Shown here piece after piece: positions 18,492-56,628 of a DNA stretch of 64,000 nucleotides. The DNA is from Lachnospiraceae bacterium. GTDB taxonomy: Bacteria; Bacillota; Clostridia; Lachnospirales; Lachnospiraceae. Location: assembly GCA_024693135.1 (NCBI GenBank), contig JAILLN010000044.1:1-64000 (forward strand), read 5' to 3'. Under the pieces are notes generated by a model. It made no database searches. It was given only the letters and a program-made list of their open reading frames with translations, and was not told where the DNA came from. Every line of letters starts with the position of its first letter. The first letter of the stretch is position 1. Position numbers and translations under genes: made by a program.

Positions 18492-18521
18492 TAAATGTGG
18501 CATCCGATTGGAGGAAAAGGT

Positions 18522-21500
18522 ATGAAAAGGGCACGGATCAGAAAAGTGACAGCGTTTTTCCTAAGTGTGGCGATGGCGGTACAGCTGCCGGGAGGCTTTG
18601 CCTTTGCACAGGAGCCGGTAATGGCGGCGGAAGAGGAGGAGCCGTCCGGGGTGGCCGCGATCCAGGAAGAGCTGCCGTCCGGAGTGGTCGTTGTTCCGGA
18701 GGAGAGGGCATCCGGTGCGGTCTCTGTTCCGGAAGAGGCATCCGGGGCGATCGAGGCCGCCGGAGAAAGCCAGATTTCGACATCGGCGAACGAATATCTG
18801 CCGAATGATTATGCGCGAAACGTAGAGGGCTGGTCCTTAGGCGAGGACGGGGTGTGGGAGATTTCCAAAAATGGTCTGGGGAGGATCTGGGAATGGGGAG
18901 ATCTGGGAGGCAATAGGCTTTTATTGACGCAGTACAAGGGAAGCAATCCGGATATCCAGGTACCCGCCAGAGTCCGCATTGAGGATCCGGATAACAATGC
19001 GTATCCGGGCATCTATTCGACTGTGATACGGAAAAAGACTGACGGAACTGATATAGAATTTTTTCTATACGGCACAGAAGCCCGTAATTGCCGTTCCTTT
19101 ACGGTTCAGGAGGGAGTCGAGCTGGATAATTATAATTGTTATGAAGAAAATCCGGCGGTGCCGGCTAAGGTGAAACTGGATGATTGGTTTGTCAATCTTA
19201 AGCAGCTCCAGAAGGTAGATCTAAGCGGACTGGATACTTCCCATCTTACGATACCGGTTAGCTTTGGTTGGACATTTATGGGCTGTGAGCTCCTGGAAGA
19301 GGTGAAGCTTCCGGTCATCATCTCGCAGAATAATGCGGAGGTGACCGATACGAATTATATGTTCTATGACTGTAAAAGTCTGGAGGAGATCGATCTAAGC
19401 TGTATTGACCTTAAAGCCGTATCATATTGCCCATATATGTTCGGGAACTGTGAGATCCTGAAAACCATCTATGTGGATCCGTCTCAGGTTGTTTTCCAGG
19501 CGGCAAGTGCACCAGGAGGAATCAGCGAGTATATGTTTGTGAGTTGCAATAACCTTGTTGGCGGGGCCGAAACGCCCACGTCCTATGACCCAGGTCATGT
19601 TGATGTCGGATACGCCCGGATCGACAAAGGAGCAAACTCACTCAGGCCCGGTTATCTTACGGCAAAGGTGAACGAGATGGACGGGTGGCGCTACGAGATG
19701 CCAAAGCAGGTCCGGTTTAACGGGAATACCTCTGTGATGATCCCTCTGGTCGGCTACGCCGGGGCGGAGACGGAGCTCGTCATCCCCGATTCCATCACCC
19801 TTTACGGCAAGACTTATCCGACTGTCCTCGACGGGTATCGGATCGACCCGGATGAAGATAATCATTACCTGGCGAGTTTTTTTTCCAAAGCGATAAACAA
19901 GGAGTATATCACTTCTATAAGCACGGGGGGAGAGATCCCGGTGCTGAGGGGAATCAGTCTGTCGTCGGCTTTTGAGGGTCATGATCGTCAGACAACCGTG
20001 GATCTTAGCGGATTGCAGTTCGAAGACCGCTCGGATCTGTATTTTGATTCTATGTTTCACGGTCTTCAATCACTTACGACTGTAGTGCTTCCCGAAATCT
20101 CGGGCAACTGCACACTGCGTTCCATAAATGGCATGTTTGATGGCTGCAATGCACTCGCAACGGTAAATATCCCTGCGGTTTCCGGGCAGTTGTATAATGT
20201 TTCTTACCTTTTCAACGGTTGTCAGAGCCTGAAAACCCTGGATCTTAGCGGGGTGGATCTTAGCGGCGTGACCAATTCCTTATCCATGTTCAATGGCTGC
20301 AGCCGCCTCGAAACGATCTACGTGGATCCAGCCAAATGTGGTTTCAGCGGCGCCTCCGGAACTGACGACGATATGTTTGCCGATTGTACGAGTCTGTCCG
20401 CTTTCAGAGGGACGACGTACGATGATAACAAAAAGGATGGTGAGTATGCCAGGATCGACAGAAAACCCAAAGGGGATCCGGGTTATTTTACGGATGCCAT
20501 GTACCGGGAAGAGCGCAGGACAACAGACGGCTGGTATTACGGGGAGCCGAAGAGCTATACCTTGGAAGGAGGGACGATCTCCAGGGACTTTGCGCCCCTG
20601 CTTCTTTATGCCGGAAACAGACCGGAGGCCGTGATTCCCGACAAGGTCACGGTAAACGGTGTGGAATATCCGACATTGATAGACGGAGATGAGTATTATC
20701 TGGGAGACGGGGGCTTCTTTTCCTCCCTGTTTTATGAGATGGACGTGCAAAATGTCACCTCTTTCCGTACGGGCGGGGAGATATGGGTGCTGAGGAATGC
20801 CTCCATGGTGGGCGCCATGAGAGAGCTGAAAAATCTCCAATCGGCGGATCTGAGCGGATTGCGGTTTGAAGCCCGCTCGTATATGGATCAAGACCTGGAC
20901 TTCGGCTCTATGTTCGTCAATCTTGAATCCCTTACGGCCGCAACGCTTCCCGCAGTTTCGGAAAACAGCAAGCTGAGCGGCATGAAAAATATGTTTAGTG
21001 GCTGTGAGGCTCTGAAGACGGTAAATATCCCTTCGGTTTCCGGGTCGTTGAAAGATGTCGATTACCTTTTCAACAAATGCAAGAGCCTGGAAATCCTTGA
21101 CCTGACAGGGATCGATTTCAATCAGGTGCATGCCTGCGGATACATGTTCGCTGGCTGCCTCTCCCTGAATACGATATATGTCAGCCCGGAAAAGTGCGAT
21201 TTCAGTGGCGCGACCAATTTCAGCGGGGGGATGTTCGATGACTGCAATAGCCTTGTGGGAGGAGCCGGCACGGCTTATCAGGGTGGCCAGGATGATCTGG
21301 AAAGAGCCCGGATCGACGGAGGGACAGACGCTCCCGGCTATTTTTCGGAAAAGCCGAATGAAACGGAGGACGGGTGGCGCTACGGGAAGCCGGAAACCAT
21401 CGACTTTAACGGGCAGTCTGCTCCGAGGATCCCTTTGCTTGGCTACTTCGGCGAGGGGACTGAGGTCGTCATCCCCGCTTCCATCTCCTTTAACGGTACG

Positions 21501-24500
21501 GTTTATCCCACCGTCATCGACGGGGGACGGTTTGATCCGGGTGACAAATGTCTGTCGAAGCTTTTTTCCGGAGCGCCGAGCCGGAACAGGATCACCTCCA
21601 TCCGCACGGGCGGGGAGATCCCGGTGCTGAGGGAGACCGATCTGGTTAATGCTTTCAGCAAGGATACTGCGGGTCTTACGAGTCTGAAAACCGCAGATCT
21701 GAGCGGGCTGAGGTTTGAGGCAGGGTCGGATCTGGCATTGGTCTGTTTGTTTAACGGTCTTTCAGACCTTGAGACAGTAAGCCTTCCGGAGATCAGCTGT
21801 TCCGTACGGACGGCTGACAGTGCGTTCGGCGGATGTACAAAGCTTGTTTCCGTGACGATCCCGGGCATCCCTGCGGGGTGCGTATTGCAGAGCATGTTTT
21901 ATAACTGTGAAAGCCTGGAAACCCTCGATCTTAGCGGCATGGATCTGAGTGCTGTGCAAAGCTCAGCTTCCATGTTCTCCGGCTGCAAAAGCCTCAGGAC
22001 GATCTACGTAGATCCCGATAAATGCAATTTCAGTCCCAACTCCGGATACAATATGTTTGAAGGCTGTGTGAAGATCAGGGGCCAGTTCGGTACGACCTAT
22101 GATCCGGATCATGTCGACGAGTATAGAGCCTGTATAGATACGGAAGCTTTCGGGCAGATAGGCTACTTTGTCGACAGCACGAAGAGGCGGCATAAGACGG
22201 AGGACGGCTGGTATTTCGGAGAGCCGGTCTCATATACCCTTCAGGGCGAGACTTCACAGCGGATGGTTCCTCTGCTGGATTACAGCGGGAAAGGACCGGA
22301 GATGGTGATCCCTTCCCGGATCAGCTATGAGGGGAGCTCCTATCCCACGGTCATCGATGAGAAGCTTTTGGGCGAATCCGGCAGTTTCTCGTCCCTGTTT
22401 GACAGCTCAGTCTCCGAAAATATCACCTCTGTACGGACTGGGGGAGAGGTATGGATATTGCCGGATCGGAACAAAGTGCTTTACATGAAGGATGCCTTCC
22501 GGAATTTCTACAAGCTCAAGACTGCGGATCTTACGGGGCTGCGCTTTGAAGCAGGTTCGACTCTGTGGCTTAACTTTTTATTCTCTGATCTGAAGGAGCT
22601 TACTAAGGTGATCCTTCCTGCGATCCCGGACACCTGTACCATTTTTACGGCAGGTTATATGTTCAGCGGCTGCTCCGCCCTGAAAGATGTTATGATCCCG
22701 GATATCCCGGGAAACTGTGACCTGAATTCTGTCGAGGATATGTTTGAATTCTGTACAAGCCTTCAATACCTTGATCTAAGCCATGTTGACTTAAGCGAGG
22801 TCTATACATGCGGATCGATGTTTAATGGCTGTTCTGCTCTGAAGACGATCTGTGTGGATCCGAAGCACTGTGATTTTTCCTCTGCCTCTTATGGGGGAGG
22901 AGGTATGTTTGAGGGCTGCGTGAGCCTTGTTGGCGGAAAGGGCACATCTTACGATTCAAATCAGACGGGTAATTACTATGCCAGGGTAGACTTTGGGGAT
23001 GTGCTGCCCGGATATTTTTCGGTATCCGGCGATTACCCTGAGCCCGCTGTAAGCTATGATTTCGTCCCAAATGATTATGCGAGGATCATGGAGGGCTGGT
23101 CTGTAAGCGAGGACGGCGTCTGGGAGATCAGCAGTGTCGATCTGGCGTCCCGATGGATCCTTACGGCCGGAAACGGGAAGCTCTTCTTGAAATATTATGA
23201 AGGCAGTAATCCCGAGCTCATGATCCCGGCAAAGATCAGAGTGACCGGAATCGGCGACGTGGAACAAGGCGACTATGACAGTGTCATTGATCTCTCCGGT
23301 GCGTATCCGGATGGTTTTCTCACATCCTATGCCCTCCGTTCCCTTCAGTTGCAGAAGGGCGTAGGGCTCATCGGAAAAGAAATAGACTCCCAGTGGAGCA
23401 CTAAAGTATACGATATCGCTCCCCTGTTCTACAACCACTGGTATTCATCTTCACTCCAAAAGGTGGATCTTGGCGGAGCGGATACCTCCCTTATGGGGAA
23501 TGCTCCTCTGGATCTTTCTTCTCTGTTTGTTGGCTGCAGTAATCTGGAGGAGGTGAGCCTCTTTTCCTCGGACCAGCCTGTATATAGCGCAGATTCCATG
23601 TTTAAGGAATGCTCCAAGCTTCAGAGCCTGGATCTGACCGGCCTGAACCTGAGTGAGGTAAGGATATGCGACTCCATGTTTTCCGGATGTAACGCCCTGA
23701 CAACGATCCTTGTAAGGCCGGGCACGGATTTTATCTCCTACAATGACGACCGGAGGGATGATATGTTTGAAAACTGTCAGGCTCTGACCGGCGGAAACGG
23801 GACAGCGTGGTCGGATCAGAATCCTGACGATAACACCTACGCCGTAATCGACGGGCTCTACGGAAAGCCGGGTTACCTCACTGTCTGTGAGGACTATAAG
23901 ACGGCAGACGGTTGGATCGTTGGAGATCCGGTGTCCCTTACTATAGGGGCTGCCTCCGAAGAGATGGTTCCCCTTCTCTATTACTGTGGGACGTCACGGA
24001 ACCTTGTGATCCCTTCGGAGGTCGCCTTCAGGGGCAATACTTATCCCGCCTTCATCGAGGAGAGGAGACTGGGCGAGAATCATGAATTCGCAGAGCTTTT
24101 TGACAGCTCGGTATCCAAAAACGTCACCTCGATTATGGTACAGGGAGGGGTATGGGTATTGGGTGACGAGGCCGAAAAGATCAGCATGAAAGAAGCCTTT
24201 AAGGGCTTTAAGAGCTTAGAAACTGCGAATCTTGCCGGGCTTTCCTTTGAGGCTGGGTCGGCACTGCTCCTTAACGGATGGTTCAAAGATCTGAAGGAGC
24301 TGAAGACGGTGGTCATGCCGGAGATCCCGGCTGACTGCACCATTCAGACCGCGGGCGGCCATATGTTTGACGGCTGCACCTCCCTTACCTCGGTGATCAT
24401 CCTGGCTATCCCTGAGGCGTGCGGCCTGAAGGCTGTTCCCGGTATGTTTAAGGGCTGCAAGGCCTTAAGGGTGCTGGATCTCAGAAGTGTGGACTTAAGC

Positions 24501-27500
24501 CAGATCACGGGCTGCAGCTATATGTTTGATGGCTGCGAAAATCTTACGACGATTTATGTGGATCCGGAGCATTGCGATTTTTCTGCGGCAGATGGTATAG
24601 GTGGTTCGTTTATGTTCAATGGCTGCGTAAACCTTGTGGGCGGAGCCGGGACGAAATATGACCCGAAGCATACCGATGCCGAATACGCCAGGGTGGACAA
24701 CGGCACGACGCTGCCCGGGTATTTTACCGACGTGAATGCCACCGGGAGCTCCATCGAGAAGTATACCTACAGTTTCATCAATACATTCGGTGCAGACGGC
24801 TTGGGATACGAGAGAGAATGGCACTACAATATCCCCGAAAAACGTTATCAGGAGGTCTACGGCCCGGCGAGAGGAAGCGCGATCTACGACTTTTACAACG
24901 ACGAGAAAGAAGAGTGGGGCGGCAGCTGCTTCGGCCTCTCCGCTACCAGCAGCCTCTTTAACAAAGGAGGCAACCCGCAGACTAACGGCCGGCAGGTGCC
25001 CTCCATAAACGGCTTTGGCGAAGGGGCGGTTTATCCGAAGGATCTGCAGTTACCCGTAACGGTGGATCGGGACACCTCAGACGACGAGGAGTCGCAGCTC
25101 TATACGGAGCTTCGAAAATATATCGAGGCCATGCAGGTGGTCCAGTTTGACGACAGGGTACAGTTCTGCTATTCCGTTGATACCATCCCGGAGGAGGTCG
25201 TGCAGGCCATCGAAAACCGTGACGACAGGGGAGAGCCTGCACCCGAGCCTGTAATCCTGGGGCTCTTCGGTCCCGAGGGGGGGCACGCAGTCTTAGGCTA
25301 CAGCGTGGAGCGCAGCGCCGATCCTGAGCCGGATAACCCCAGCGTGAACGGCACCCCGCTTTACATTCATATCTATGACAGCAACTGGCCCATGGAGGAT
25401 CGGAAGATCACCCTCTACACGGATGTGGATGGAAGCTGCACAGGCTGGCATTACGATCTCTGTGACATTTATAAATGGGGTTCGGAAAATCCGAAATGCG
25501 CCATTACCTACATTCCCTCCGACATCTTTAAGGCAGTATGGGAGGATAAGGGCGAGTATGACGAGAATGAGTGGATCGAAAAGATGGACAAACTCCTTGG
25601 AGGAGACAAGTGGTCCGTCCTGGAGGATTATTTTTTCAATGAAGCTTATTCCACAGGCGAAGCCTATGAGTATTACAGGGACGAAGCGGAATTCGACGAG
25701 GATCTGGAAGGCCTCGGAGAAAAAGAGGTAGGCTTCTTTGCGGAGAATAAAAACCTTGATGCCGGGGAGTATGAGAAGGCATTACAGAAGACCTTCCAGG
25801 GCACCGATGAGACGGCCATGCGCTGCCGGATGCGCTGCCGGATCCTGTATTACGAAGAGAAGATCAATGAGATCAGCATAGAGTATCAGAACAATCCGGA
25901 TTCTCAGGACTTTGAAAACAAACTGAAGGAGCTCTGGCCGGATGCGGGCAGTGACGAGGCGAAACAGACCAATATGCGCTGCCGGATGCGTTGCCGTATG
26001 CGCTGCCGGATGCGTTGCCGCATGGCTGATATCGAGTCGAATTACGGCAAGAGCCCGAGCGAGTTTGAAGAGGAGATCAATACGCTCTGGCCGGATACAG
26101 GCAGTGACGACGAAGCGAAACAGACCAATATGCGGTGCCGTATGCGCTGTCGGTTGCTCTATGCGGATAACAAGGCCCGGGTGCTCTTTGGAAGCTATGA
26201 AAACGACCCGGCAGGGCTTGAGCAGCAGCTTAGCAGCCTCTGGCCGGATACGGGCAGTGACGAGACGAAACAGACCAATATGCGCTGCCGTATGCGATGC
26301 CGGCTGGCCTTTTCCGACGAAAAGGCAGAGAGCCTCTTCGGGCAGAACTTAAGCCCCGAGGATATGGATGCCGAGGTGAGCAGGCTCTGGCCGGATACAG
26401 GCAGTGACGAGGCAAAACAGGCCAATATGCGCTGCCGGATGCGCTGCCGCTTAAGCTTTGCGGAGCAGGCGGGAGCGGATGAGCATTATTTCGACCGGTA
26501 TGCGGACGACCCGGAAGGGTATGAAAAAGCCCTGAATACCCTCTGGCCGGATACGGGCGATCAGGAGATCAGGGATACCCACATGCGCTGCCGGATGCGC
26601 TGCCGGATGAGGTGCCGGATGCGCTGCCGGATGAGGTGCAGAATGAGGTGCAGAATGAGGTGCAGAATGAGGTGCCGGATGCGCTGCCGCGCCATGATCG
26701 TGGAAAACAACAGCTATATGATAAAGGACGGAGCCGGGAATGACCTTGTGACCGTAAACAGGGGGTCGGTTGACGTGGCAGAAGGCGAAGAGGATCGTGC
26801 CTTTGTACAGAGATCCGTAAGGATCTTTGCTGATGGGGACAACCGTCCGCCTCAGGACGGGCTGGTCTTTACTTCAGCCAGCACCAACCGGAGCGTTGAG
26901 AGTAATGATGGCGGCCTTGCCTTTAGGGCCATGGACGGAGAAAAGACCGTACTGGTAAAGACCGACGCACCGAAGGCGGACTTTGAACTGAACGATAAGG
27001 AACAGAAGAATAACGTCAACATCCCTCTGGCAGAGGGACAGACCTTTGAGGTGCAGTTTACCGGAAAGAGCAAGGCAGAGGAAGCAAAAGTCATCGGAAA
27101 GGGCAACGGCAGCGGGGACGGAGCCGTGATCGGCATGGAAGGCGGCAATGGCCTCGAGCTCCAGAACGTGGAGATCACACAGGTGCAGGTCGGGAACAAT
27201 AAATCCGACGGAACGGGCAGGGACATCAACAGCCTGGTGGCATCCCTTACGGACTACGTCCTCCCCTACAACGGAGGCGAGCCGGTGAAGCCCGGAGTCA
27301 CGGTACATGACGGAGATAAGGTGCTTACCCGGGACAAGGACTTCGTAGTGGTCTATGAAAACAACACCGTGAGCGGAAACGCAAGGGCAGTGATTTACGG
27401 CATGGATGACTACAGGGGGAGCCGGATCCTGGAATTCAGGATCTCCGGCAATGCGGTTTCCGGCAGCTTCCATATGGTCCACTTCTACATGAACGAGAAG

Positions 27501-29321
27501 GGCCGGGCGAATACGGCTCCGGCAAATCAGATCATACGAGACGGAGGCTTTGCCGTAAAGCCCGCGGACCCCATGGGAGTGGGCATGAGCTTCGGCGGCT
27601 GGTATGAGGACAGAGAATGCAGCGAGGATAAGGAGTATTCCTTCGAAACCGAGGTGAAAAAGGATCTGACCCTCTACGCTAAATGGACGGATGTAAAGGA
27701 GCTGGCGGCAGCCTTCTCCACGGATCCCGCAGACGGAGAGATCGTAACCTATAACAAAGACAATAGCCGCTACGAGCATGTCTTTACCGGAAGCAGCATT
27801 ATGCCGGCAGTGATCATCACCAACAGAGGCAGGGTGCTTACGGAGGGCAGGGACTATACCTTAAGCTACAGCAATAACCTCAATGCCGAGAAGAAGGGAA
27901 AGAGCGCGAAGGTAAAGATCAAGGGCATCGGAACCTATAACGGCGTAAAGACCCTGGAATTCTTCATTACCCCGAAGTCTCTGGAAGACGGGGATCTGGA
28001 TATTGCGGAGATCACCGTAAAGAGCGGGACGAAGGCCTCTGTTTTCATAGATTACAACGGCTACGAGCTAAAGTCGAAGGACTATACGATTAACGGAAAT
28101 AAAAAGTTTAAGGAAAACGGAACCGTGGACATCGAGGGTAAGGGGAATTTCACCGGTACGATCAAGGGAGTTCCCGTAAATGTCCTGACCGCCGGGGAGT
28201 ACAATAAGAAAAAGATCAGGGTAAGCCTTAAGCCTAAGAAGCTGCAGAAGACCTATAACGGTGAGGCTCAGGTGCTTACTGCTGATGAGCTTAGCGTAGA
28301 GGACGGGGAAGGAAACGCCCTGATGCCCGAAAACATACGGGTAAAGTACTATAATAACGTAAATGCCGGCACGGCGAAGGTAATGGTTACCGCCCTTTCG
28401 CCTTATGTGGGAAGGGTTACCAAAACCTTTAAGATCAGTCCGGATAAAACGGACAGCGCCGTAACCGTAACGGCGCCGGAGGATACGCCTTACGAAAGAG
28501 ACGGGGCAAAGCCTGTGATCGTAGTAAAGGCCGTCAGAAACGGAAAGGAGATCCTCCTTGCGGAGGGGACGGACTATAAGCTTGGCTTCAGCAATAATAA
28601 GAAGGTGAGCACGGCAAAGAAACAGGCGGCCTGGAAGATTTCCTTTACGGGAAATTACAAGGGAAGGAAGGCGCAGAAGGGAAAGTTCAACGTAACGCCC
28701 GGTTCACTCCTTTCGGCCACGGTAAATGTGGGAGACCTGTGCTACGAAGAATCCGGGAAAAACCGGTCCGTGCCCATCGTGCTCCTTGACGGGGTGAAGG
28801 TGGATCCGAAGGATTATACCGTAACCTATCTTAAGAACGGGGAGGAGGTTACCGGAAAGATAACCCTTAAAGAGGGAAAGAGCGAGGAGGAGATCACTGT
28901 CCGCATCACGGGAAAGAGGAATTATGACCCGTCGGTTTCCGTGGAGGGCACCTATCTCTTAAAGACGATCCCGGAGGATGCCATCAACTTAAACGGCGCA
29001 CGCATTGCCTCAAATGGATCAAAGAAGAGTGTCAGCGACCAGACCTATACGGGAGAGCCCCTTACGCCCGATGCCGAAGTCTATGTGAAGAAGAACGGCA
29101 AATGGGAGAGCACACCGGTAGATCCGTCCCTCTACAGGATGGAGTATCTGAATAACGTGGAGAAGGGTACGGGAGTGATCCTCGTTACCGGAACCGGCGA
29201 GAAGGCCGTAGGCAGCAGCACGGCGAATTTCAAGATCAAGGTAAGGAGCTTTGAGACCCTGAAGCAGATCGGGAACGGCTTTGTCAATGCTTTCCGGTTC
29301 CTTGCGGGTAAGGATCTTTGA
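18522..29321 (+). CDS. giant LRR surface protein with papain-like core and MRCR arrays, 3,599 aa
   Basis: The start at 18522 follows TTGGAGG. A Sec signal peptide (FFLSVAMAVQLPGGFAFA) leads into a Glu/Pro/Ser-Gly-Val repeat tail. Residues about 85-2070 hold seven modules of about 280 residues, each starting with an EGW/DGW...G-type strand and carrying BspA-like DUF285 repeats (MFSGCEAL, LDLSGVDLS, TIYVDP). Residues about 2080-2310 show WGGSCFGLS (Cys2136), GGHAVLGYS (His2255) and IYDSNW (Asp2286/Asn2288), a plausible Cys-His-Asp/Asn catalytic set of a papain-like fold. Residues 2433-2723 contain six MRCR arrays joined by helical spacers ending in LWPDTGSDEAKQTN. A Flg_new repeat (about 2985-3056) and several MBG/SLAP-like strand repeats (YTLSYSNN, YKLGFSNN) complete the protein. 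It has no LPxTG motif. Function is unknown; extracellular and cell-associated by inference. Confidence 0.85.
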   Translation: MKRARIRKVTAFFLSVAMAVQLPGGFAFAQEPVMAAEEEEPSGVAAIQEELPSGVVVVPEERASGAVSVPEEASGAIEAAGESQISTSANEYLPNDYARNVEGWSLGEDGVWEISKNGLGRIWEWGDLGGNRLLLTQYKGSNPDIQVPARVRIEDPDNNAYPGIYSTVIRKKTDGTDIEFFLYGTEARNCRSFTVQEGVELDNYNCYEENPAVPAKVKLDDWFVNLKQLQKVDLSGLDTSHLTIPVSFGWTFMGCELLEEVKLPVIISQNNAEVTDTNYMFYDCKSLEEIDLSCIDLKAVSYCPYMFGNCEILKTIYVDPSQVVFQAASAPGGISEYMFVSCNNLVGGAETPTSYDPGHVDVGYARIDKGANSLRPGYLTAKVNEMDGWRYEMPKQVRFNGNTSVMIPLVGYAGAETELVIPDSITLYGKTYPTVLDGYRIDPDEDNHYLASFFSKAINKEYITSISTGGEIPVLRGISLSSAFEGHDRQTTVDLSGLQFEDRSDLYFDSMFHGLQSLTTVVLPEISGNCTLRSINGMFDGCNALATVNIPAVSGQLYNVSYLFNGCQSLKTLDLSGVDLSGVTNSLSMFNGCSRLETIYVDPAKCGFSGASGTDDDMFADCTSLSAFRGTTYDDNKKDGEYARIDRKPKGDPGYFTDAMYREERRTTDGWYYGEPKSYTLEGGTISRDFAPLLLYAGNRPEAVIPDKVTVNGVEYPTLIDGDEYYLGDGGFFSSLFYEMDVQNVTSFRTGGEIWVLRNASMVGAMRELKNLQSADLSGLRFEARSYMDQDLDFGSMFVNLESLTAATLPAVSENSKLSGMKNMFSGCEALKTVNIPSVSGSLKDVDYLFNKCKSLEILDLTGIDFNQVHACGYMFAGCLSLNTIYVSPEKCDFSGATNFSGGMFDDCNSLVGGAGTAYQGGQDDLERARIDGGTDAPGYFSEKPNETEDGWRYGKPETIDFNGQSAPRIPLLGYFGEGTEVVIPASISFNGTVYPTVIDGGRFDPGDKCLSKLFSGAPSRNRITSIRTGGEIPVLRETDLVNAFSKDTAGLTSLKTADLSGLRFEAGSDLALVCLFNGLSDLETVSLPEISCSVRTADSAFGGCTKLVSVTIPGIPAGCVLQSMFYNCESLETLDLSGMDLSAVQSSASMFSGCKSLRTIYVDPDKCNFSPNSGYNMFEGCVKIRGQFGTTYDPDHVDEYRACIDTEAFGQIGYFVDSTKRRHKTEDGWYFGEPVSYTLQGETSQRMVPLLDYSGKGPEMVIPSRISYEGSSYPTVIDEKLLGESGSFSSLFDSSVSENITSVRTGGEVWILPDRNKVLYMKDAFRNFYKLKTADLTGLRFEAGSTLWLNFLFSDLKELTKVILPAIPDTCTIFTAGYMFSGCSALKDVMIPDIPGNCDLNSVEDMFEFCTSLQYLDLSHVDLSEVYTCGSMFNGCSALKTICVDPKHCDFSSASYGGGGMFEGCVSLVGGKGTSYDSNQTGNYYARVDFGDVLPGYFSVSGDYPEPAVSYDFVPNDYARIMEGWSVSEDGVWEISSVDLASRWILTAGNGKLFLKYYEGSNPELMIPAKIRVTGIGDVEQGDYDSVIDLSGAYPDGFLTSYALRSLQLQKGVGLIGKEIDSQWSTKVYDIAPLFYNHWYSSSLQKVDLGGADTSLMGNAPLDLSSLFVGCSNLEEVSLFSSDQPVYSADSMFKECSKLQSLDLTGLNLSEVRICDSMFSGCNALTTILVRPGTDFISYNDDRRDDMFENCQALTGGNGTAWSDQNPDDNTYAVIDGLYGKPGYLTVCEDYKTADGWIVGDPVSLTIGAASEEMVPLLYYCGTSRNLVIPSEVAFRGNTYPAFIEERRLGENHEFAELFDSSVSKNVTSIMVQGGVWVLGDEAEKISMKEAFKGFKSLETANLAGLSFEAGSALLLNGWFKDLKELKTVVMPEIPADCTIQTAGGHMFDGCTSLTSVIILAIPEACGLKAVPGMFKGCKALRVLDLRSVDLSQITGCSYMFDGCENLTTIYVDPEHCDFSAADGIGGSFMFNGCVNLVGGAGTKYDPKHTDAEYARVDNGTTLPGYFTDVNATGSSIEKYTYSFINTFGADGLGYEREWHYNIPEKRYQEVYGPARGSAIYDFYNDEKEEWGGSCFGLSATSSLFNKGGNPQTNGRQVPSINGFGEGAVYPKDLQLPVTVDRDTSDDEESQLYTELRKYIEAMQVVQFDDRVQFCYSVDTIPEEVVQAIENRDDRGEPAPEPVILGLFGPEGGHAVLGYSVERSADPEPDNPSVNGTPLYIHIYDSNWPMEDRKITLYTDVDGSCTGWHYDLCDIYKWGSENPKCAITYIPSDIFKAVWEDKGEYDENEWIEKMDKLLGGDKWSVLEDYFFNEAYSTGEAYEYYRDEAEFDEDLEGLGEKEVGFFAENKNLDAGEYEKALQKTFQGTDETAMRCRMRCRILYYEEKINEISIEYQNNPDSQDFENKLKELWPDAGSDEAKQTNMRCRMRCRMRCRMRCRMADIESNYGKSPSEFEEEINTLWPDTGSDDEAKQTNMRCRMRCRLLYADNKARVLFGSYENDPAGLEQQLSSLWPDTGSDETKQTNMRCRMRCRLAFSDEKAESLFGQNLSPEDMDAEVSRLWPDTGSDEAKQANMRCRMRCRLSFAEQAGADEHYFDRYADDPEGYEKALNTLWPDTGDQEIRDTHMRCRMRCRMRCRMRCRMRCRMRCRMRCRMRCRMRCRAMIVENNSYMIKDGAGNDLVTVNRGSVDVAEGEEDRAFVQRSVRIFADGDNRPPQDGLVFTSASTNRSVESNDGGLAFRAMDGEKTVLVKTDAPKADFELNDKEQKNNVNIPLAEGQTFEVQFTGKSKAEEAKVIGKGNGSGDGAVIGMEGGNGLELQNVEITQVQVGNNKSDGTGRDINSLVASLTDYVLPYNGGEPVKPGVTVHDGDKVLTRDKDFVVVYENNTVSGNARAVIYGMDDYRGSRILEFRISGNAVSGSFHMVHFYMNEKGRANTAPANQIIRDGGFAVKPADPMGVGMSFGGWYEDRECSEDKEYSFETEVKKDLTLYAKWTDVKELAAAFSTDPADGEIVTYNKDNSRYEHVFTGSSIMPAVIITNRGRVLTEGRDYTLSYSNNLNAEKKGKSAKVKIKGIGTYNGVKTLEFFITPKSLEDGDLDIAEITVKSGTKASVFIDYNGYELKSKDYTINGNKKFKENGTVDIEGKGNFTGTIKGVPVNVLTAGEYNKKKIRVSLKPKKLQKTYNGEAQVLTADELSVEDGEGNALMPENIRVKYYNNVNAGTAKVMVTALSPYVGRVTKTFKISPDKTDSAVTVTAPEDTPYERDGAKPVIVVKAVRNGKEILLAEGTDYKLGFSNNKKVSTAKKQAAWKISFTGNYKGRKAQKGKFNVTPGSLLSATVNVGDLCYEESGKNRSVPIVLLDGVKVDPKDYTVTYLKNGEEVTGKITLKEGKSEEEITVRITGKRNYDPSVSVEGTYLLKTIPEDAINLNGARIASNGSKKSVSDQTYTGEPLTPDAEVYVKKNGKWESTPVDPSLYRMEYLNNVEKGTGVILVTGTGEKAVGSSTANFKIKVRSFETLKQIGNGFVNAFRFLAGKDL
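19670..24735 (+). repeat. tandem ~840-bp modules in the LRR protein
   Basis: Modules start near 19678, 20525, 21367, 22198, 23080 and 23902, with a first divergent module before 19670. Spacing is 820-880 bp. Each repeats the order DGW strand, VIP...YPT strand, FxSLF, LSGL, MFxGC, TIYVDP, and a final YARIDxG...PGYF. The modules are diverged at DNA level, so the duplication is old. Confidence 0.85.
25818..26690 (+). repeat. six arrays of 12-bp units encoding Met-Arg-Cys-Arg
   Basis: Arrays lie at 25818-25841 (2 units), 25974-26021 (4), 26130-26153 (2), 26280-26303 (2), 26427-26450 (2) and 26583-26690 (9), 21 units in all. The basic unit is ATGCGCTGCCGG. Variants ATGAGGTGCCGG, ATGAGGTGCAGA, ATGCGTTGCCGT, ATGCGGTGCCGT and ATGCGATGCCGG all still encode MRCR. 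Spacers of 34-44 residues between arrays are themselves repeats, rich in acidic residues and ending in LWPDTGSDE-K-T-N. The DNA therefore carries a two-level repeat: short units inside a longer period of about 126-156 bp. Confidence 0.95.
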
Positions 29322-29610
29322 GAATTGAGGGAAAAGAGTATTTAAAGCGCCGCATCGGGGTCGGCCGGATTTTGGAATGTTCATATATCCATTCCTGGAG
29401 GGCTTCCTGGTTGTCTGCTATGACATCAGGGGCATTGTAGATGTCATCCAGTGAAAACCCGCAACCGGCGATGCAGACAAAAAGTGGTCTCGAACCGTCC
29501 CCTTGTCTTCATTCTGCTGGGGATGATTTTCATCCGGGGGGATCCATCCCGCCGCCCGGGGGCGGGGAGCCTTCGTTTGGCGGCGTATTCCCGGCCGGGA
29601 GCTGAGAGCC
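29322..29610 (-). pseudogene. decayed tail of rsgI repeats plus an unidentified coding remnant
   Basis: Downstream of the rsgI stop at 29611 the minus strand still reads Pro-rich repeat sequence to about 29515: GSQLPAGNTPPNEGSPPPGG, then a shift of frame. Beyond it, at about 29330-29490, another minus-strand frame reads CIAGCGFSLDDIYNAPDVI and onward to KYSFPSIL without a start codon. I do not recognise this second piece. No convincing terminator is seen for either flanking gene. Confidence 0.5.
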
Positions 29611-30852
29611 TTAATTTGGCGGTGCGCCCCCGCCTGGAGACGGCATGCCTTCATTCGGCTGTGGCGCATCTCCATTCTGCTGGGGATGATTTTCATCCGG
29701 GGGACTCATCCCACCATCCGGGGGCTGAGAGCCTTCGGATGGCGGAGTACCCCCGCCCGGAGACGGCATGCCTTCATTCGGCTGTGTCATATCTCCGTTT
29801 GGCTGAGGATGGCTGTCATCCGGGGGATCCATCCCGCCGCCCGGGGGCTGAGAGCCTTCATTTTGCGGTGCATTCCCGTCCGGAGACGGAGAGCCTCCAT
29901 TCGGCTGTGTCATATCTCCGTTTGGCTGCGAACTGTTTTTGTCCGGCGGATTCATCCCACCGCCCGGGGGCTGGGAGCCTTCATTTTGCGGTGCATTCCC
30001 GTCCGGAGACGGAGAGCCTCCATTCGGCTGTGTCATATCTCCGTTTGGCTGCGAATTGTTTTTGTCCGGGGGATCCATCCCGTCGCCCGGAGGAGAAGAA
30101 AGATCACCCTGTGGATCCATCCCGCTGTCCGGACTGGAAGATTTTTCATCCGGCTGAGGGACATGATCCATTACCTGGTCCGGATCGGAAGGCTCCGGCA
30201 GCGGAGCTTTTTCCTGCATCGGATAATGCTCATCCATATAGATCCTGCCCGGACTTTGATTCTTTTCCAGGGCTTTTTTTGACAGATCATCCGTTACAAT
30301 GACCGTCTCCCCGCTGATGCTTTTTTTGCTTCCATCCTCGGCATGTTTTTCATTCCAGTCCCTCATGCCCTGTTCCGCTCTTTTTTCCAGCCGCCGGTCT
30401 CCTTTGAAACGGCTGTTTAATGTGACGACCACAGGCGTTTCTTCCTCGATATAATGTTCATTTTCCAGTTCATCCAGAGTGATCCCGATGGCATCATCGA
30501 TCTTTTTTCCTTTAAGCTCGGTGCTGAGCTTATCCACGATCTCCTGGCCGTCCTCATTATAGGCTTCAAAATCCAGGACCTGATCAAAGAAGTTCAGCTC
30601 ATATTTTAAGGAGGGATTTACATCCAGGGTGACCGTGCTGCAGGCGTAGGCATTTGCGGTGATCCCTCCCATAAGAAGAAATACTGCGGCGGCAGCGGAT
30701 GCCATGCTGATCAAAGTGCGGTTCAGCCGGACTTCGGAAATTTCCAGCTTCTGTCCTTTGGTATAGTTTCGGTTCCGGATGGATCGGAAGGCTCCGTCTG
30801 CGGTAAGCACTGCGGCATGTTTCCCTTTGACCTTTAATACAACAGCCTTCAT
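29611..30852 (-). CDS. rsgI: RsgI-type anti-sigma factor with Pro/Gly-rich repeat tail
   Basis: The 413-residue product starts with the RsgI cytoplasmic domain (MKAVVLKVKGKHAAVLTADG), then one membrane helix near residues 47-68 and the conserved outer segment YACSTVTLDVNPSLKYELN. This family binds SigI inside the cell and releases it when an outer sensor domain detects a signal, often polysaccharide. Here the outer part ends in a repetitive Pro/Gly/Gln/Asn-rich tail (41-residue period) in place of a recognised carbohydrate-binding domain. The start overlaps the sigI stop as ATGA, with AAGGAGGAG upstream, so the pair is translationally coupled. The frame ends at a TAA that replaces a GAA in the repeat unit. 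Confidence 0.85.
   Translation of the reverse strand: MKAVVLKVKGKHAAVLTADGAFRSIRNRNYTKGQKLEISEVRLNRTLISMASAAAAVFLLMGGITANAYACSTVTLDVNPSLKYELNFFDQVLDFEAYNEDGQEIVDKLSTELKGKKIDDAIGITLDELENEHYIEEETPVVVTLNSRFKGDRRLEKRAEQGMRDWNEKHAEDGSKKSISGETVIVTDDLSKKALEKNQSPGRIYMDEHYPMQEKAPLPEPSDPDQVMDHVPQPDEKSSSPDSGMDPQGDLSSPPGDGMDPPDKNNSQPNGDMTQPNGGSPSPDGNAPQNEGSQPPGGGMNPPDKNSSQPNGDMTQPNGGSPSPDGNAPQNEGSQPPGGGMDPPDDSHPQPNGDMTQPNEGMPSPGGGTPPSEGSQPPDGGMSPPDENHPQQNGDAPQPNEGMPSPGGGAPPN
29613..30110 (-). repeat. 123-bp tandem repeats in rsgI
   Basis: Near-identical copies of a 123-bp unit (41 residues, with MTQPNG, PSPDGN, GSQPPGGGM and PPD-N motifs) fill the 3' part of rsgI; for example CATTTTGCGG recurs at 29859 and 29982. 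Shorter, diverged units continue past the stop codon. Confidence 0.85.
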
Positions 30853-31705: not shown

Positions 31706-34700
31706 TCAATCCGTAACCGTAACCATAATCTTTGCGATCCTGCCGTTGATCGTGGCCGAAACCGTTGTTTTTCCGGAGGATACGGCCTCCATTATTCCGT
31801 TTTCATTCACAAATACCTTTTTTGCATTCCCGCTCTTCCAATTTACCGTCTGTTCAGCCATTCCGGGCTGCCATTTTGTGATATCCAGCGTTTCTCCCTT
31901 CTTCAGCACAACACTGCAGTAATAGGGATTTCCGCTTTTGACTTCCGCAAGAGGGCTTTCCGGGTTTGCGGCGCTGGTGATAAAGGAGGGGTCGGTCACG
32001 TGAACCGTCGTGCAATAGGTTATGCCCTGATAGGTGCAGGTCAGTGTCGTATGACCGGTTACCGATCCGGCCGTGATCCTGACTTTTGCTTTATCTGTGT
32101 TCTTCAGAGTCAGAAGGTTTTCGCCGCCCGTCCAGGTAACGTTATTATTTTTTACAAAGGTATGCTTTAAGGTTGTGCTTTGTCCGGCATTCAGATAAAG
32201 CTCGGTCTTTACCGGCATGGACTGGATCGTAACCGTAAGCACGGCAGATCCTCCCTTCGAATCTGTTCCATATATCGTGGCACTGCCGGTTTTTAATGCG
32301 GTGATCAAGCCGGATTTGCTGATCTTGAATAACCCCCCGGCATCAACCCATTCCTTTTTTTCATTGATGCCAAGCTCCTGTCCGTCTGCATTTCCGTATT
32401 TCCAGGAAGCCGCCTTGGATGGAAGGAATACCGAGCTGTCGTATTTTAAGCGATAAGTCTGGAGGGCATTGATCGTAATTTGATCTTCCTTGGAAAGTTT
32501 TACCGGGCTTACCACATTCTTCACGATGACCGCCGCCGTATATGCCCTGCCGCCGATGCAGGCCGTGATCTTCGCTTTCCCGGTTCCCGTGGCTTGGATC
32601 ATGGCTGTAGTGCTCCCATCCTTCTTTTCTTGAGCCACGCTGGCAACCATGGGATTTGACGTAAGCCAGGCCTGGGGCATGCCTTCTCCCACAGACTCTC
32701 CGAAGGACAGCGTACCGCTTTCGCCTACGTAGAGAACGAGCTTTTTCTTTTCAAGAGAAGGCTGATATACCGTGATATGATAGACGGATTCCACCCCGTC
32801 TTTCGTATTCACAAGAACGGCCGTGCCTTTTTTTCTTCCCGTGACCACGCCCTTTTTTGTCCATGATACATATGCAGCGCCTTCCTTCAATGACCAGGTT
32901 CCGTCTCCCAGTTCCACTCTTTGTCCCTTCACCAGGTTCAGGGAATAAGCATTTTCTGCCGTTTTTTCGATGATCGGCCTTGCATCCATGCCGGACTTTG
33001 GGGAGTTTCCGCTGATGCTGCCGTCGTTTCCGCCACCCGGATTTCCCTCCGTAGGCGTGCCCGGGTTTCCTTCCGTAGGCGTGCCGTCAGAGGAAATCGA
33101 TGTGACATAGCTGCCGGAGGAGGCTTGCAGCTCAGGCGAAGCATAAAGGATAAAGGAGCCGGCAAAGGGGAGCTGAGTGCTGTATATCGTGGTGCCGTCG
33201 AGGGTTACAAGAAAATACTGTCCGGCACTGTAAGCAGAAGCACCGGGCATCGTGCCTTCCCCAGGGTTGCCGGGCATCGTGCCTTCTCCGGGAGTGCCGG
33301 GCATCGTGCCTTCCCCAAGGTTGCCGGGCATCGTGCCTTCTCCGGGAGTGCCGGGCATCGTGCCTTCTCCGGGGTTGCCGGGCATCCCGTTCTGGCTGCT
33401 TCCGTAAGTGACATAGACCGCGTTGTCCGGAGTGCTTCCCGGCTTCGCTTCGTTCATTCCGTCCACGCCCGTGGCCAGTACCGTCGCACTCTTATAAAGT
33501 GTAAATCCGTTGTCTGAGTCAATGGGAGAATTGTCCCCGGAGGACTGTCCATAGACATACAGCTTTCCTCCGTATACCGTAAGGCTTCCGTTACAGTCGA
33601 TCCCGTCTCCGGAGGAACTGTAGTTTACGGTTTTTAGCGCGGCAAGGCTCCCATCCGGCAGGTCTGTCGTGTTATTTTGATCCACATCGGCACTGTCGAT
33701 CCGGATCAAGACGTTTCCACTGTAGATATTGCAGGCATTTCCACTTTTCGACACGGACTTTTTCAGGTAATTGATCTCGTCATCCAGATCATATCCGTCG
33801 CGGCTGTCATAGGTATAGGTCACAGTCTTTCCGGAGGCATTGATCCCGTCGTCGTTGGAGTTGATCGTGATTTCCGGACCCGTGGTGGAATCTTTTGTGC
33901 CGATATTCACCATGCTTCCTTCCATCCCTTCATAGCAGGTAACGATGTCCAGCTTCGTATCAGAGCCTGTGATCTCCACGGTTTCTCCGGTCACGCCGTC
34001 GTCTGCGGAAGCTACCGTGATCCTGCCCCCCGTAATAGACAGGGTATTATTGGAATGAATCCCATCCTCAGGCGAACCGATGATATATGCTCCTGTCCCT
34101 GCCGCGGTATAGCCGGATGTAGAGAGAGCATTTGCTTTTAGGCCCGTTTTTGTCGTATCGATCGTAACCGTTCCGCCGCTGATCCATATTCCTCCTGAGG
34201 CGTCCTGTGTGATGGATTCCTCTCCGGATGCAAAGGAGATCGTCTCTGCCTTGGTTCCTCCCTTCAGTCCCTTATGGCTTCCGGTATCCAGATTGATCCT
34301 TTCGTATTTTGTCGTGCTTCCCTGTGCGCCTTCTTCCCAGATATAATTTAATGTCGTATCATTTCCGGCTTTTTTGTCGCTTCCGTAAAAAGACGAGGCG
34401 GCATGTTCAAACACGGTGGAAATATTGATCGTACCGTCTTCAATGTTGATCTCCTCGGCCTGGATGCCATCTCCCCGGCAATCCGAAATATTGACTGTCC
34501 CGCTCTGGATCGTTACTGTCCCGTCCTTTGCCTTGATGCCGTCATCCGGGCTGTCCTTTAATGTCAGAATCCCGCTTCCGCAAAAGGTCAGTTTGGCTTC
34601 CTTCGCCTTAACGATCGGCTCACTTCCTCCGGCACTGCCGATCAGAACAGAATCCCCCTCCGGGCGGATCGCCGCTTCACAGCCGCTTTTTACCGTGATT

Positions 34701-35371
34701 ACGGCTTCTTCGGCTTCCTTATCCGCAAGCATCTCCCAAAGAGCGGAATCATCGATCTTAAGATCCTGCAACGTCAGCTTTACCCCGGTAGTTCCTTTTT
34801 TTACCGTCACCGTGATATTTTCCCCCGTGCCGGTCAGGATATAGTTACCGGATGCTTTGATCGTGACAGACGTTATACCATCCTGTGTCTCAATGATCAC
34901 GTTTCCGCTGATGCTGTCCTGTACCACGGCCGTATTCCCATCGAAGGTGATGGTTCCCTCTGGCAGGCTCTGAGCTGTACTTTCTTCGCCGGGATCTGCC
35001 ACAATGTCTTCCGTGGAATCCATGATTACATTCTCTGTTTCACACAAACCGGATTCCGTGCTGCTTTCAGACGCCTCCGTGGCTTCTGCGATCACGGTGT
35101 CGTCCGAAGCATCTTGTGCTGCGGAAATCCCGACCACATCTTCATCTGTGGCTTCTGCAAGCTCTAATGCCACGGCTTCTACGGACTCTGCTGCCACGGC
35201 TTCTACGGACTCTGCTGCCACGGCTTCTGCGGACTCTGCTGCCACGGCTTCCGCGGACTCTGCTGCTATTGCCTCTGCCGCGCCCAACTGCATTCCGCTC
35301 ATCGTGAATACGGCGGTAAAAAGAATTAGCGCCCATTTTTTCATTACCTTTTTGATCCTTCTCTGCTCCAT
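31706..35371 (-). CDS. carbohydrate-binding-domain surface protein, 1,221 aa
   Basis: The ATG at 35371 follows AAAGGAG and opens a signal peptide (KWALILFTAVFTMSGMQLGAA). An Ala/Glu/Ser/Val repeat tail follows (AAESAEAV units). Residues about 140-640 resemble the DUF4353 carbohydrate-binding domain, a right-handed beta-helix with GDGIQAEEINIEDGTINIS and DGIHSNNTLSITGG-type rungs. A collagen-like stretch holds five EGTMPG units. The C-terminal 400 residues are Ig-like strands of the Big_2 type (GVVTGRKKGTAVLV, GKAKITACIGG). It lies upstream of sigI/rsgI in the same orientation and is the natural candidate for a SigI-controlled product. Cell-wall anchoring is not evident. Confidence 0.8.
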   Translation of the reverse strand: MEQRRIKKVMKKWALILFTAVFTMSGMQLGAAEAIAAESAEAVAAESAEAVAAESVEAVAAESVEAVALELAEATDEDVVGISAAQDASDDTVIAEATEASESSTESGLCETENVIMDSTEDIVADPGEESTAQSLPEGTITFDGNTAVVQDSISGNVIIETQDGITSVTIKASGNYILTGTGENITVTVKKGTTGVKLTLQDLKIDDSALWEMLADKEAEEAVITVKSGCEAAIRPEGDSVLIGSAGGSEPIVKAKEAKLTFCGSGILTLKDSPDDGIKAKDGTVTIQSGTVNISDCRGDGIQAEEINIEDGTINISTVFEHAASSFYGSDKKAGNDTTLNYIWEEGAQGSTTKYERINLDTGSHKGLKGGTKAETISFASGEESITQDASGGIWISGGTVTIDTTKTGLKANALSTSGYTAAGTGAYIIGSPEDGIHSNNTLSITGGRITVASADDGVTGETVEITGSDTKLDIVTCYEGMEGSMVNIGTKDSTTGPEITINSNDDGINASGKTVTYTYDSRDGYDLDDEINYLKKSVSKSGNACNIYSGNVLIRIDSADVDQNNTTDLPDGSLAALKTVNYSSSGDGIDCNGSLTVYGGKLYVYGQSSGDNSPIDSDNGFTLYKSATVLATGVDGMNEAKPGSTPDNAVYVTYGSSQNGMPGNPGEGTMPGTPGEGTMPGNLGEGTMPGTPGEGTMPGNPGEGTMPGASAYSAGQYFLVTLDGTTIYSTQLPFAGSFILYASPELQASSGSYVTSISSDGTPTEGNPGTPTEGNPGGGNDGSISGNSPKSGMDARPIIEKTAENAYSLNLVKGQRVELGDGTWSLKEGAAYVSWTKKGVVTGRKKGTAVLVNTKDGVESVYHITVYQPSLEKKKLVLYVGESGTLSFGESVGEGMPQAWLTSNPMVASVAQEKKDGSTTAMIQATGTGKAKITACIGGRAYTAAVIVKNVVSPVKLSKEDQITINALQTYRLKYDSSVFLPSKAASWKYGNADGQELGINEKKEWVDAGGLFKISKSGLITALKTGSATIYGTDSKGGSAVLTVTIQSMPVKTELYLNAGQSTTLKHTFVKNNNVTWTGGENLLTLKNTDKAKVRITAGSVTGHTTLTCTYQGITYCTTVHVTDPSFITSAANPESPLAEVKSGNPYYCSVVLKKGETLDITKWQPGMAEQTVNWKSGNAKKVFVNENGIMEAVSSGKTTVSATINGRIAKIMVTVTD
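33240..33390 (-). repeat. 30-bp repeats coding EGTMPG collagen-like units
   Basis: Five 30-bp copies encode PGEGTMPG-N/T-P/L-G decapeptides, near-identical at DNA level and therefore likely to vary in number between strains. Confidence 0.85.
35150..35280 (-). repeat. 24-bp repeats coding AAESAEAV
   Basis: Four to five 24-bp copies encode Ala-Ala-Glu-Ser-Ala/Val-Glu-Ala-Val directly after the signal peptide of the carbohydrate-binding protein. Confidence 0.85.
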
Positions 35372-56571: not shown

Positions 56572-56628
56572 AGAAATGGATGAAATGACGCCCCTCAGGC
56601 TTAAGGCCCGGGGGGCGCATGCATTCAA

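What the first reader, a model, noticed from the sequence alone, without database searches (positions are those of the whole stretch)
25818..26690. 21 Met-Arg-Cys-Arg units in six arrays within a secreted protein
A 291-residue stretch of the LRR surface protein is built from arrays of the tetrapeptide MRCR (2, 4, 2, 2, 2 and 9 copies) separated by helical acidic spacers. I know of no described family with this motif. Cys and Met recur every fourth residue, so in a helix the Cys residues form one stripe (repeated C-x3-C), with Arg on two other faces. Possible roles are soft-metal binding, redox or cross-linking chemistry, or binding of acidic polymers.
Basis: partly seen in the sequence, partly recalled or inferred. 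Interest (0 to 1): 0.92.

Follow-up and report, generated by a model that had tools for sequence, protein, structure and literature searches.

The report
Genome-specific four-amino-acid repeat arrays
Giant, apparently secreted proteins of some gut Lachnospiraceae carry long runs of one four-amino-acid word; most genomes examined use a single word in all their copies, different genomes use different words, and no known protein family describes this.

Summary
In detail: 21 exact MRCR units in six arrays (2,4,2,2,2,9) at 25818-26690. Two diverged paralogs in the genome make 61 units, written with 18 different 12-mers and no amino-acid change. MRCR is one word of a family: 43 array proteins in 17 genomes, 648 units, 12 words (MRCR, LRCR, VKCR, MRCK, LRCK, VRCK, FRVR, FRLR, FRLK, FRMR, YRMK, YRMR), all hydrophobic-basic-hydrophobic-basic. 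The Cys slot is Phe/Tyr in 21 of 43, so metal or thiol chemistry is not the shared function. The word follows the genome, not the gene: 10 of 12 multi-copy genomes use one word throughout, while trees reject one clade for this genome's three genes (p-AU 8.7e-11) and for all MRCR genes (2.9e-5). The module lies between a papain-like peptidase-like domain and a beta domain, among acidic spacers. Best reading: a multivalent recognition array read by a genome-specific partner, possibly other arrays; the partner is unidentified. No curated family or held paper searched describes it.

The parts
18522..29321 (+). CDS of the array protein (3599 aa from the ATG at 18522; the longer ORF starts at 18495)
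   Evidence: start chosen by eye from the RBS-like GGAGG and the signal-peptide-like N terminus
18522..18611 (+). signal-peptide-like N terminus (MKRARIRKVTAFFLSVAMAVQ...AFA)
   Evidence: sequence read by eye; no signal-peptide program was run
18792..24734 (+). BspA/DUF285 (PARCEL-type) leucine-rich repeat tract (limits approximate, set by eye)
   Evidence: PF13306 7e-36, PF03382 3e-29; TIGR02167 1e-28
24762..25571 (+). papain-like cysteine peptidase-like domain, WGGSCFG ... GGHAVLGY ... YDSNWP
   Evidence: Cys, His, Asp and Asn invariant in 25 aligned relatives; Foldseek matches of the L064 relative's model to SpeB, Tse1, IdeS and IdeC only at E 0.2-1, below CD4-type Ig hits at E 0.02-0.1
25572..25817 (+). 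acidic linker before the first array
25818..25841 (+). array 1, MRCR x2
25842..25973 (+). acidic helical spacer 1 (...LWPDAGSDEAKQTN)
25974..26021 (+). array 2, MRCR x4
26022..26129 (+). acidic helical spacer 2
26130..26153 (+). array 3, MRCR x2
26154..26279 (+). acidic helical spacer 3
26280..26303 (+). array 4, MRCR x2
26304..26426 (+). acidic helical spacer 4
26427..26450 (+). array 5, MRCR x2
26451..26582 (+). acidic helical spacer 5
26583..26690 (+). array 6 (terminal), MRCR x9
   Evidence: conformation not reliably predicted (block-mean pLDDT about 42-53)
26691..27260 (+). beta-rich domain that follows the terminal array (AMIVENNSYMIKDGAGN...); far limit approximate
   Evidence: pLDDT 84-95 over residues 411-510 of the second model; in the array-less homologue L080 it follows the peptidase directly (by eye)
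27498..27683 (+). Listeria-Bacteroides (Flg_new) repeat
   Evidence: PF09479 1.8e-10

Best explanation
The arrays are a multivalent recognition element. They are an extended, amphipathic, strongly basic stretch made of one tetrapeptide of the form [M/L/V]-[R/K]-[C/F/Y]-[R/K] (up to rotation), read unit by unit by a partner that all array proteins of a cell share. The acidic W..DE spacers around the arrays balance their charge and probably keep them latent or soluble. Because one partner serves every paralog, its preference fixes the same tetrapeptide in the units of all copies; when that preference shifts in a lineage, the units follow. Shown: exact units, codon scrambling, unit type following the genome rather than the gene, Cys not required, charge of arrays and spacers scaling together, a conserved peptidase-like domain next door. 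Inferred: extended conformation, latency, and the existence of the partner. The partner's identity (a processing or modifying enzyme, a receptor, or other arrays) is not known; one common reader is preferred because the peptidase domains of the paralogs do not group by unit type.
For: Units are held at protein level: 640 of 648 units equal a main unit of their genome in 43 proteins of 17 genomes, against at least 259 silent variants. G012 has 96 of 96 LRCR in 7 paralogs with 40 different 12-mers and five Leu codons. The chance of only silent changes, by a simple count of possible substitutions, is about 1e-11 for G000 and 1e-20 for G012. Unit follows genome: 10 of 12 multi-copy genomes are uniform, and 0 of 100,000 shuffles reached this (maximum 6; the shuffle ignores kinship). 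The three G000 genes are not one clade (p-AU 8.7e-11), the four MRCR genes are not one clade (p-AU 2.9e-5), and at least 3 M/L changes are needed among 16 genes; each MRCR gene has 19-21 units in six arrays. Period-2 alternation in 12 of 12 unit types, and in all 25 array proteins of the genus that the peptidase search found. Array charge against the charge of the rest of the module: Pearson -0.88, n = 36. Catalytic-type residues conserved. Arrays and spacers are absent from homologues such as L080.
Against: No partner gene was found. Among the eight loci whose neighbours I listed there was no shared neighbour that I could see, except common synteny of the related L059 and L064 (by eye from the ends of the ORFs). 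A clostripain-type Arg protease does not track the arrays (8 of 9 array genomes, not G012; 31 of 39 array-less congeners). AlphaFold favours helix for the short arrays. Two of 12 multi-copy genomes are mixed: RUG8 has LRCK and FRMR; G015 has four FRVR and one FRLK copy, the latter 14 mismatches in 3993 bases from G023's, so recent transfer or misbinning. Some arrays are ragged: the first array is CRLRCR in L052 (second gene) and L055, and the FRLK array of G023/G015 holds YRIK and YRMR units. The charge correlation is partly a length effect and is not corrected for kinship. Both AU tests were set after the tree had been seen. My array finder itself demands hydrophobic-basic alternation, so arrays of another pattern would be missed. 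Data are draft assemblies and MAGs.
Confidence: 0.4

Rival explanations
1. Self-assembly: the arrays are each other's partner. Arrays of all paralogs pack together as beta-sheets (fibre, matrix or cell-cell glue), so a cell's proteins must share one unit; the acidic spacers and the peptidase control when this happens.
For: Strict period-2 amphipathicity in all 12 unit types; uniformity across paralogs; a synthetic peptide of the same form, IK8 (IRIKIRIK), is described as beta-sheet forming (passage in PMC10139150), and a hairpin of alternating Lys and Val self-assembles (passage in PMC4282886).
Against: No trustworthy beta prediction; AlphaFold draws helices, at low confidence for the long arrays. 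It is not obvious why R and K may almost never be exchanged in a stacked sheet. Like-charged strands need counter-ions or the acidic spacers.
Confidence: 0.25
2. Latent membrane-active peptide: the acidic spacer masks a cationic amphipathic array that, once freed by the papain-like domain, disrupts membranes of competitors or protozoa.
For: Charge masking, adjacent conserved peptidase-like domain, same hydrophobic-basic formula as IK8.
Against: Antimicrobial peptides do not need exact tetrapeptide uniformity across paralogs (general knowledge); short 2-unit arrays sit inside predicted helical repeats; no immunity gene or dedicated exporter was noticed beside the genes (by eye only).
Confidence: 0.12
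3. Generic polyanion binding (teichoic acid, pectin, DNA, glycans): only charge and hydrophobicity matter.
For: High Arg/Lys density; apparently secreted LRR host protein.
Against: R and K, and L, M and V, would then drift freely; instead 640 of 648 units are on type, and MRCK arrays keep R at position 2 and K at position 4 in 37 of 37 units.
Confidence: 0.1
4. Soft-metal binding, redox or cross-linking through Cys and Met.
For: Cys and Met at every fourth residue in MRCR; a heavy-metal P-type ATPase gene is just upstream in the window, and ORFs that look like FeoA and FeoB (by eye) follow the LRCR gene of L056.
Against: 21 of 43 family members have no Cys in the unit. I recognised no metal transporter among the ORFs listed beside the C50, C66, L058, L059, L064 or L068 genes (by eye from ORF ends only).
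Confidence: 0.03
5. No selection on function: arrays are homogenised by DNA recombination between repeats.
For: Terminal arrays vary in unit number (6-10 in the MRCR/LRCR long forms), and the terminal arrays of C50 and C66 share the ATGCGGTGC form, so some expansion and exchange is likely.
Against: Copying would homogenise synonymous sites too, yet G012 has 40 DNA versions of one peptide unit; isolated 2-unit arrays flanked by diverged spacers obey the same rule.
Confidence: 0.05

Closest known systems
PARCEL / DUF285 / BspA-type LRR surface proteins (TIGR02167, PF03382, PF13306; PMC2996958, abstract and outline seen)
   Same: The N-terminal half of the host protein matches these repeat models.
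   Different: The PARCEL motif is a 25-residue repeat with extensive sequence variation (abstract); the tetrapeptide arrays lie outside it, with strict units and a genome-wide code.
Papain-like cysteine peptidases (C10 SpeB, C66 IdeS, NlpC-type Tse1, C70 AvrRpt2)
   Same: Cys, His, Asp/Asn in a fitting order; weak Foldseek (E 0.2-1) and Pfam C70 (0.016, in 2 of 25 members) signals.
   Different: No significant match to any named family; combined with the array module.
Synthetic beta-sheet peptide amphiphiles such as IK8, (IRIK)2 (passage in PMC10139150)
   Same: Same formula: hydrophobic-basic-hydrophobic-basic tetrapeptide in tandem.
   Different: Man-made free 8-mers; here natural, up to 21 consecutive units (L145), inside a giant protein, with one exact unit in most genomes.
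RNA polymerase II CTD heptads and similar tandem docking or modification sites (recalled, no call)
   Same: Many copies of one short word read by shared partners.
   Different: CTD repeats tolerate variants and are conserved between species (recalled); here the word is nearly exact within a genome and switches between genomes across paralogs.

Membership tests
PARCEL/DUF285 LRR surface protein | profile match over the curated cut-off | tested here: met
   PF03382 101 bits (cut-off 25), TIGR02167 98 bits (cut-off 30), PF13306 123 bits (cut-off 27.7). This concerns the N-terminal half, not the arrays.
Papain-like cysteine peptidase | Cys-His-Asp/Asn residues conserved in the family | tested here: met
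   C56, H175, D206, N208 invariant in 25 rows. One search shows the motifs in the array proteins; L029 begins after the Cys, and for the first L059 gene the script caught another stretch while its WGGSCYG is seen.
Papain-like cysteine peptidase | significant fold or profile match | tested here: inconclusive
   best papain-like Foldseek E 0.23, below CD4-type Ig hits at 0.02-0.1; C70 E 0.016 in 2 of 25 members; PDB sequence search gave two hits only, a prion fragment at 0.062 and a cysteine protease (1qwx) at 0.5
Papain-like cysteine peptidase | proteolytic activity | not testable with these tools
   needs an assay
Cys-rich metal-binding repeat (metallothionein-like) | metal-ligand Cys conserved in homologous arrays | tested here: not met
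   Cys slot is F or Y in 21 of 43 proteins
Beta-sheet antimicrobial peptide of IK8 type | alternating hydrophobic-basic tetrapeptide | tested here: met
   12 of 12 unit types
Beta-sheet antimicrobial peptide of IK8 type | beta-sheet structure | tested here: inconclusive
   AlphaFold draws helix, at low confidence for the long arrays
Beta-sheet antimicrobial peptide of IK8 type | membrane or antibacterial activity as a free peptide | not testable with these tools
   needs peptide synthesis and assay
Any curated family for the array itself (Pfam, NCBIfam) | profile match in the array region | tested here: not met
   no best stretch in the array region of P0001; window row of A4: 0 families, and seven NCBIfam families matched 1-2 of 25 members at E 0.009 or worse

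The most novel reading that the evidence does not exclude
The tetrapeptide is a species-level molecular password: arrays on all giant surface proteins of a cell carry the same word, and a reader (other arrays or one receptor) joins or recognises only proteins and cells that bear it. The word has switched wholesale several times in these Lachnospiraceae.
Probability: 0.2. Interest if true: 0.92.

Novelty: categorically new. Interest (0 to 1): 0.77.

Why it matters
Paralogous proteins that share an exact short word within a genome, while the word differs between related genomes, are an unusual evolutionary pattern: codon-scrambled, amino-acid exact and genome-wide. It points to a single trans-acting reader, or to self-recognition, in little-studied gut bacteria. 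It also gives a natural counterpart to engineered (hydrophobic-basic)n self-assembling peptides. The word-swap between genomes makes the recognition question directly testable with synthetic peptides.

Tried and rejected
Helical Cys-stripe or metal model: rejected because Cys-free homologues occupy the same place. Assembly artefact: rejected (three contigs in G000, other assemblies, scrambled codons). DNA-level homogenisation: rejected as the cause of the amino-acid uniformity (codon diversity). A clostripain-type Arg protease (PF03415) as a dedicated partner: 39 of 48 congeners have it, among them 8 of the 9 array genomes but not G012, so it does not track the arrays.

Fold searches of both AlphaFold models gave no match at E <= 0.001; AlphaFold on the VRCK variant left most of the array at pLDDT about 40-57. 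Plasmid and phage collections: no match to the peptidase domain of the window. Conserved neighbours: none recognised among eight loci beyond the synteny of L059 and L064, by eye from the ends of the ORFs; single cases seen there are FeoA/FeoB-like ORFs after L056 and oligopeptide-transporter-like ORFs after L058. Among 16 already held sources no run of alternating acidic residues was found that could pair with the arrays.

Literature: exact strings MRCRMRCR, LRCRLRCR, FRLRFRLR, LRFRLRFR, FRVRFRVR, YRMRYRMR, YRMKYRMK, MRCKMRCK in the held PMC library gave nothing relevant (one chance hit in an electronics paper). Word searches showed no description of such arrays in their listings; only the listings were seen, plus passages of PMC4282886 and PMC10139150 and abstract and outline of PMC2996958.

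Known weaknesses: in the gene tree row L038 was sliced wrongly because my motif search missed WAGSC (858 residues instead of 267; cut to 400), one gene appears twice (L032 and L070 are the same genome under two handles), L069 was left out as the same genome as G004, and L139, L140, L141, L145, L147 and L148 came later and are not in the tree. Both AU tests were posed after the tree was seen. The charge correlation used 36 of 38 rows; L029 and L038 were dropped for lack of the motif, and the duplicates L032/L070 and the near-duplicates L031/L047 are both in. The species tree was meant to be PurA but took the longest ORF of the locus, which by position is a 470-residue purB fragment. The off-type count covers only units that differ by one residue beside a perfect unit; in the FRLK array of G023/G015 a few YRIK and YRMR units, and in several arrays the ragged ends, differ more and are not counted. 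The zero helical moment of 9-unit arrays is partly exact cancellation over 36 residues; the 18-residue values are the fairer ones.

Full report
Observation. The window ORF 18495-29321 (+) encodes a giant protein (3599 aa from the likely start at 18522). Its residues 2442-2732 in the longer numbering hold 21 exact MRCR units in six arrays of 2, 4, 2, 2, 2 and 9. All 21 Cys of the region lie in the units and no near-miss unit exists. The own genome holds two more genes of this kind on other contigs: 21 units (2,3,2,1,3,10) and 19 units (2,3,2,2,2,8). They are diverged: from peptidase to the end of the arrays they are 53 and 52% identical to the window protein, arrays included. The 61 units use 18 different 12-mers and show no amino-acid change.

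Anatomy. Order of parts: signal-peptide-like start (by eye), BspA/DUF285 leucine-rich repeats, a papain-like cysteine peptidase-like domain with conserved Cys, His, Asp and Asn, an acidic linker, the arrays separated by acidic spacers with W..DE-type motifs, a beta-rich domain, then Flg_new and further sequence. The fold assignment of the peptidase is weak: Foldseek brings SpeB, Tse1, IdeS and IdeC, but only at E 0.2-1 and below CD4-type Ig hits at 0.02-0.1, and Pfam C70 appears at 0.016 in 2 of 25 members. In the array-less homologue L080 the peptidase runs directly into the beta domain (by eye), so spacers and arrays behave as one module that is present or absent.

A family of units. A search with the peptidase and array region in genome contigs returned Lachnospiraceae MAGs, many of them from ruminants by their titles, whose arrays stand at the same places but consist of other tetrapeptides. 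After removing genomes reached under two handles, I counted 43 array proteins in 17 genomes with 648 units: MRCR (4 proteins), LRCR (12), VKCR (1), MRCK (3), LRCK (1), VRCK (1), FRVR (4), FRLR (2), FRLK (4), FRMR (1), YRMK (4), YRMR (6). Rotated, all fit [M/L/V]-[R/K]-[C/F/Y]-[R/K]. Cys is thus interchangeable with Phe/Tyr on the evolutionary scale, which speaks against metal or thiol chemistry as the shared role.

Distribution. In the genus 9 of 48 genomes have a hit to the peptidase domain at 1e-15; all 25 proteins carry arrays (two weak hits in G013 and G030, have none in view). In a sample of 397 family genomes 15 had a hit at 1e-5 and only G000 and G123 showed arrays; 17 other loci had none within about 1.5 kb on either side. 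In the genus of G123, 3 of 4 genomes have array proteins. In 392 order genomes 9 had a hit at 1e-8 and none but G000 showed arrays in view. Plasmid and phage collections had no match to the window's peptidase domain. The pattern search for MRCR in 60 relatives found none besides the own genome, but those 60 did not include G063, which has MRCR.

Selection on the protein. Within G012 all 96 units of seven paralogs read LRCR, written with 40 different 12-mers and five Leu codons. Taking the number of distinct versions as a lower bound of silent changes, the chance of seeing only silent changes is about 1e-11 in G000 and 1e-20 in G012 by a simple count of possible substitutions. Over the whole set at least 259 silent variants stand against 8 units off by one residue (units that differ by more are not counted, see Tried and rejected).

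Unit follows genome. Of 12 genomes with two or more array genes, 10 use one unit in every copy; 0 of 100,000 shuffles of unit types over proteins reached this (maximum 6; kinship ignored). The exceptions are RUG8 (LRCK and FRMR) and G015, whose odd FRLK gene differs from that of G023 by 14 of 3993 bases and is therefore a recent arrival or a binning error. The gene tree of peptidase and beta domains puts the C66 gene (MRCR) in a clade with LRCR genes of three other genomes (100/100), with G063 (MRCR) branching next to it (94/87), and the window and C50 genes apart (99/96). Holding the three G000 genes together is rejected (p-AU 8.7e-11), and so is holding all four MRCR genes together (p-AU 2.9e-5); both tests were posed after the tree was seen. 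At least three M/L changes are needed among 16 genes. In a purB-fragment tree G063 groups with the LRCR genomes G012 and G029 and the array-less G001 (99/96), and G000 lies outside. Each change replaces about 20 units in six separate arrays.

Physical character. The unit alternates hydrophobic and basic residues, so an extended strand would have one greasy and one basic face, while the helical moment is small. AlphaFold draws the short arrays with their spacers as helical repeats at block-mean pLDDT mostly 80-90 and the long terminal array as a helix at about 42-53, and the VRCK variant as a helix at about 40-57 over most of its length; the conformation of the long arrays is therefore open. 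Array charge and the opposite charge of the rest of the module rise together (Pearson -0.88, n = 36), partly because both grow with length. The same formula is used in the synthetic beta-sheet antimicrobial peptide IK8, IRIKIRIK (one passage in PMC10139150).

Mechanism. The facts call for an optimum that is common to the units of a cell and differs between lineages. Given large bacterial population sizes (general knowledge, not tested here), even a weak advantage per unit would keep it exact, and a shift of the optimum would drag the units along, as binding sites follow a regulator. The most likely source of such an optimum is a shared reader: an enzyme, a receptor or the other arrays. The peptidase domain of the same protein was present wherever arrays were seen whole, but this set was found through that domain, and it does not group by unit type, so it is a less likely reader. 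Clostripain-type Arg proteases do not track the arrays. I give the common-reader model 0.4 and self-assembly 0.25.

Novelty. No Pfam or NCBIfam model covers the arrays, and the held literature does not contain the strings searched. I know of no described system with a paralog-wide, genome-specific peptide word. The function is unproven, and all sequences are draft assemblies or MAGs.

Noticed in passing
L009 18340-18660 (+), directly after the C50 array gene: 107-residue ORF with a double-glycine-leader-like stretch (DDQMAEVAGG) and a short core, like a leader-peptide-type secreted peptide; not looked for systematically beside the other array genes.
   Followed up: partly
window 15101-18055 (+): Heavy-metal P-type ATPase with two HMA matches just upstream of the array gene.
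   Followed up: partly
L056 12562-15056 (+): ORFs that look like FeoA and FeoB (by eye) directly after the LRCR array gene.
   Followed up: no
L058 10354-14574 (+): ORFs that look like an oligopeptide ABC transporter (by eye) directly after the VKCR array gene.
   Followed up: no
window 1345-11424 (+): Second giant ORF of 3359 aa with Flg_new repeats and CBM_X2.
   Followed up: no
window 29591-30090: 123-bp x4 tandem repeat in the 3' part of an RsgI-type anti-sigma factor gene (29611-30852, -), near a Cthe_2159-type carbohydrate-binding protein gene (31706-35371, -).
   Followed up: no
L067 3216-9671: 2152-aa ORF with the peptidase domain and a long tract of acidic W[T/S]xxDE repeats; the contig ends before any basic array.
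   Followed up: partly
G015:C150 (L047) and G023:C110 (L031): Nearly identical FRLK array genes (14 mismatches in 3993 bases) in two genomes whose PurA differ clearly: recent transfer or misbinning.
   Followed up: partly
L145, L147, L141 (one genome, G476): Very long YRMR arrays of about 18-21 consecutive units after long acidic repeat tracts.
   Followed up: partly
window 56618-56698: 36-bp unit repeated 2.2 times.
   Followed up: no
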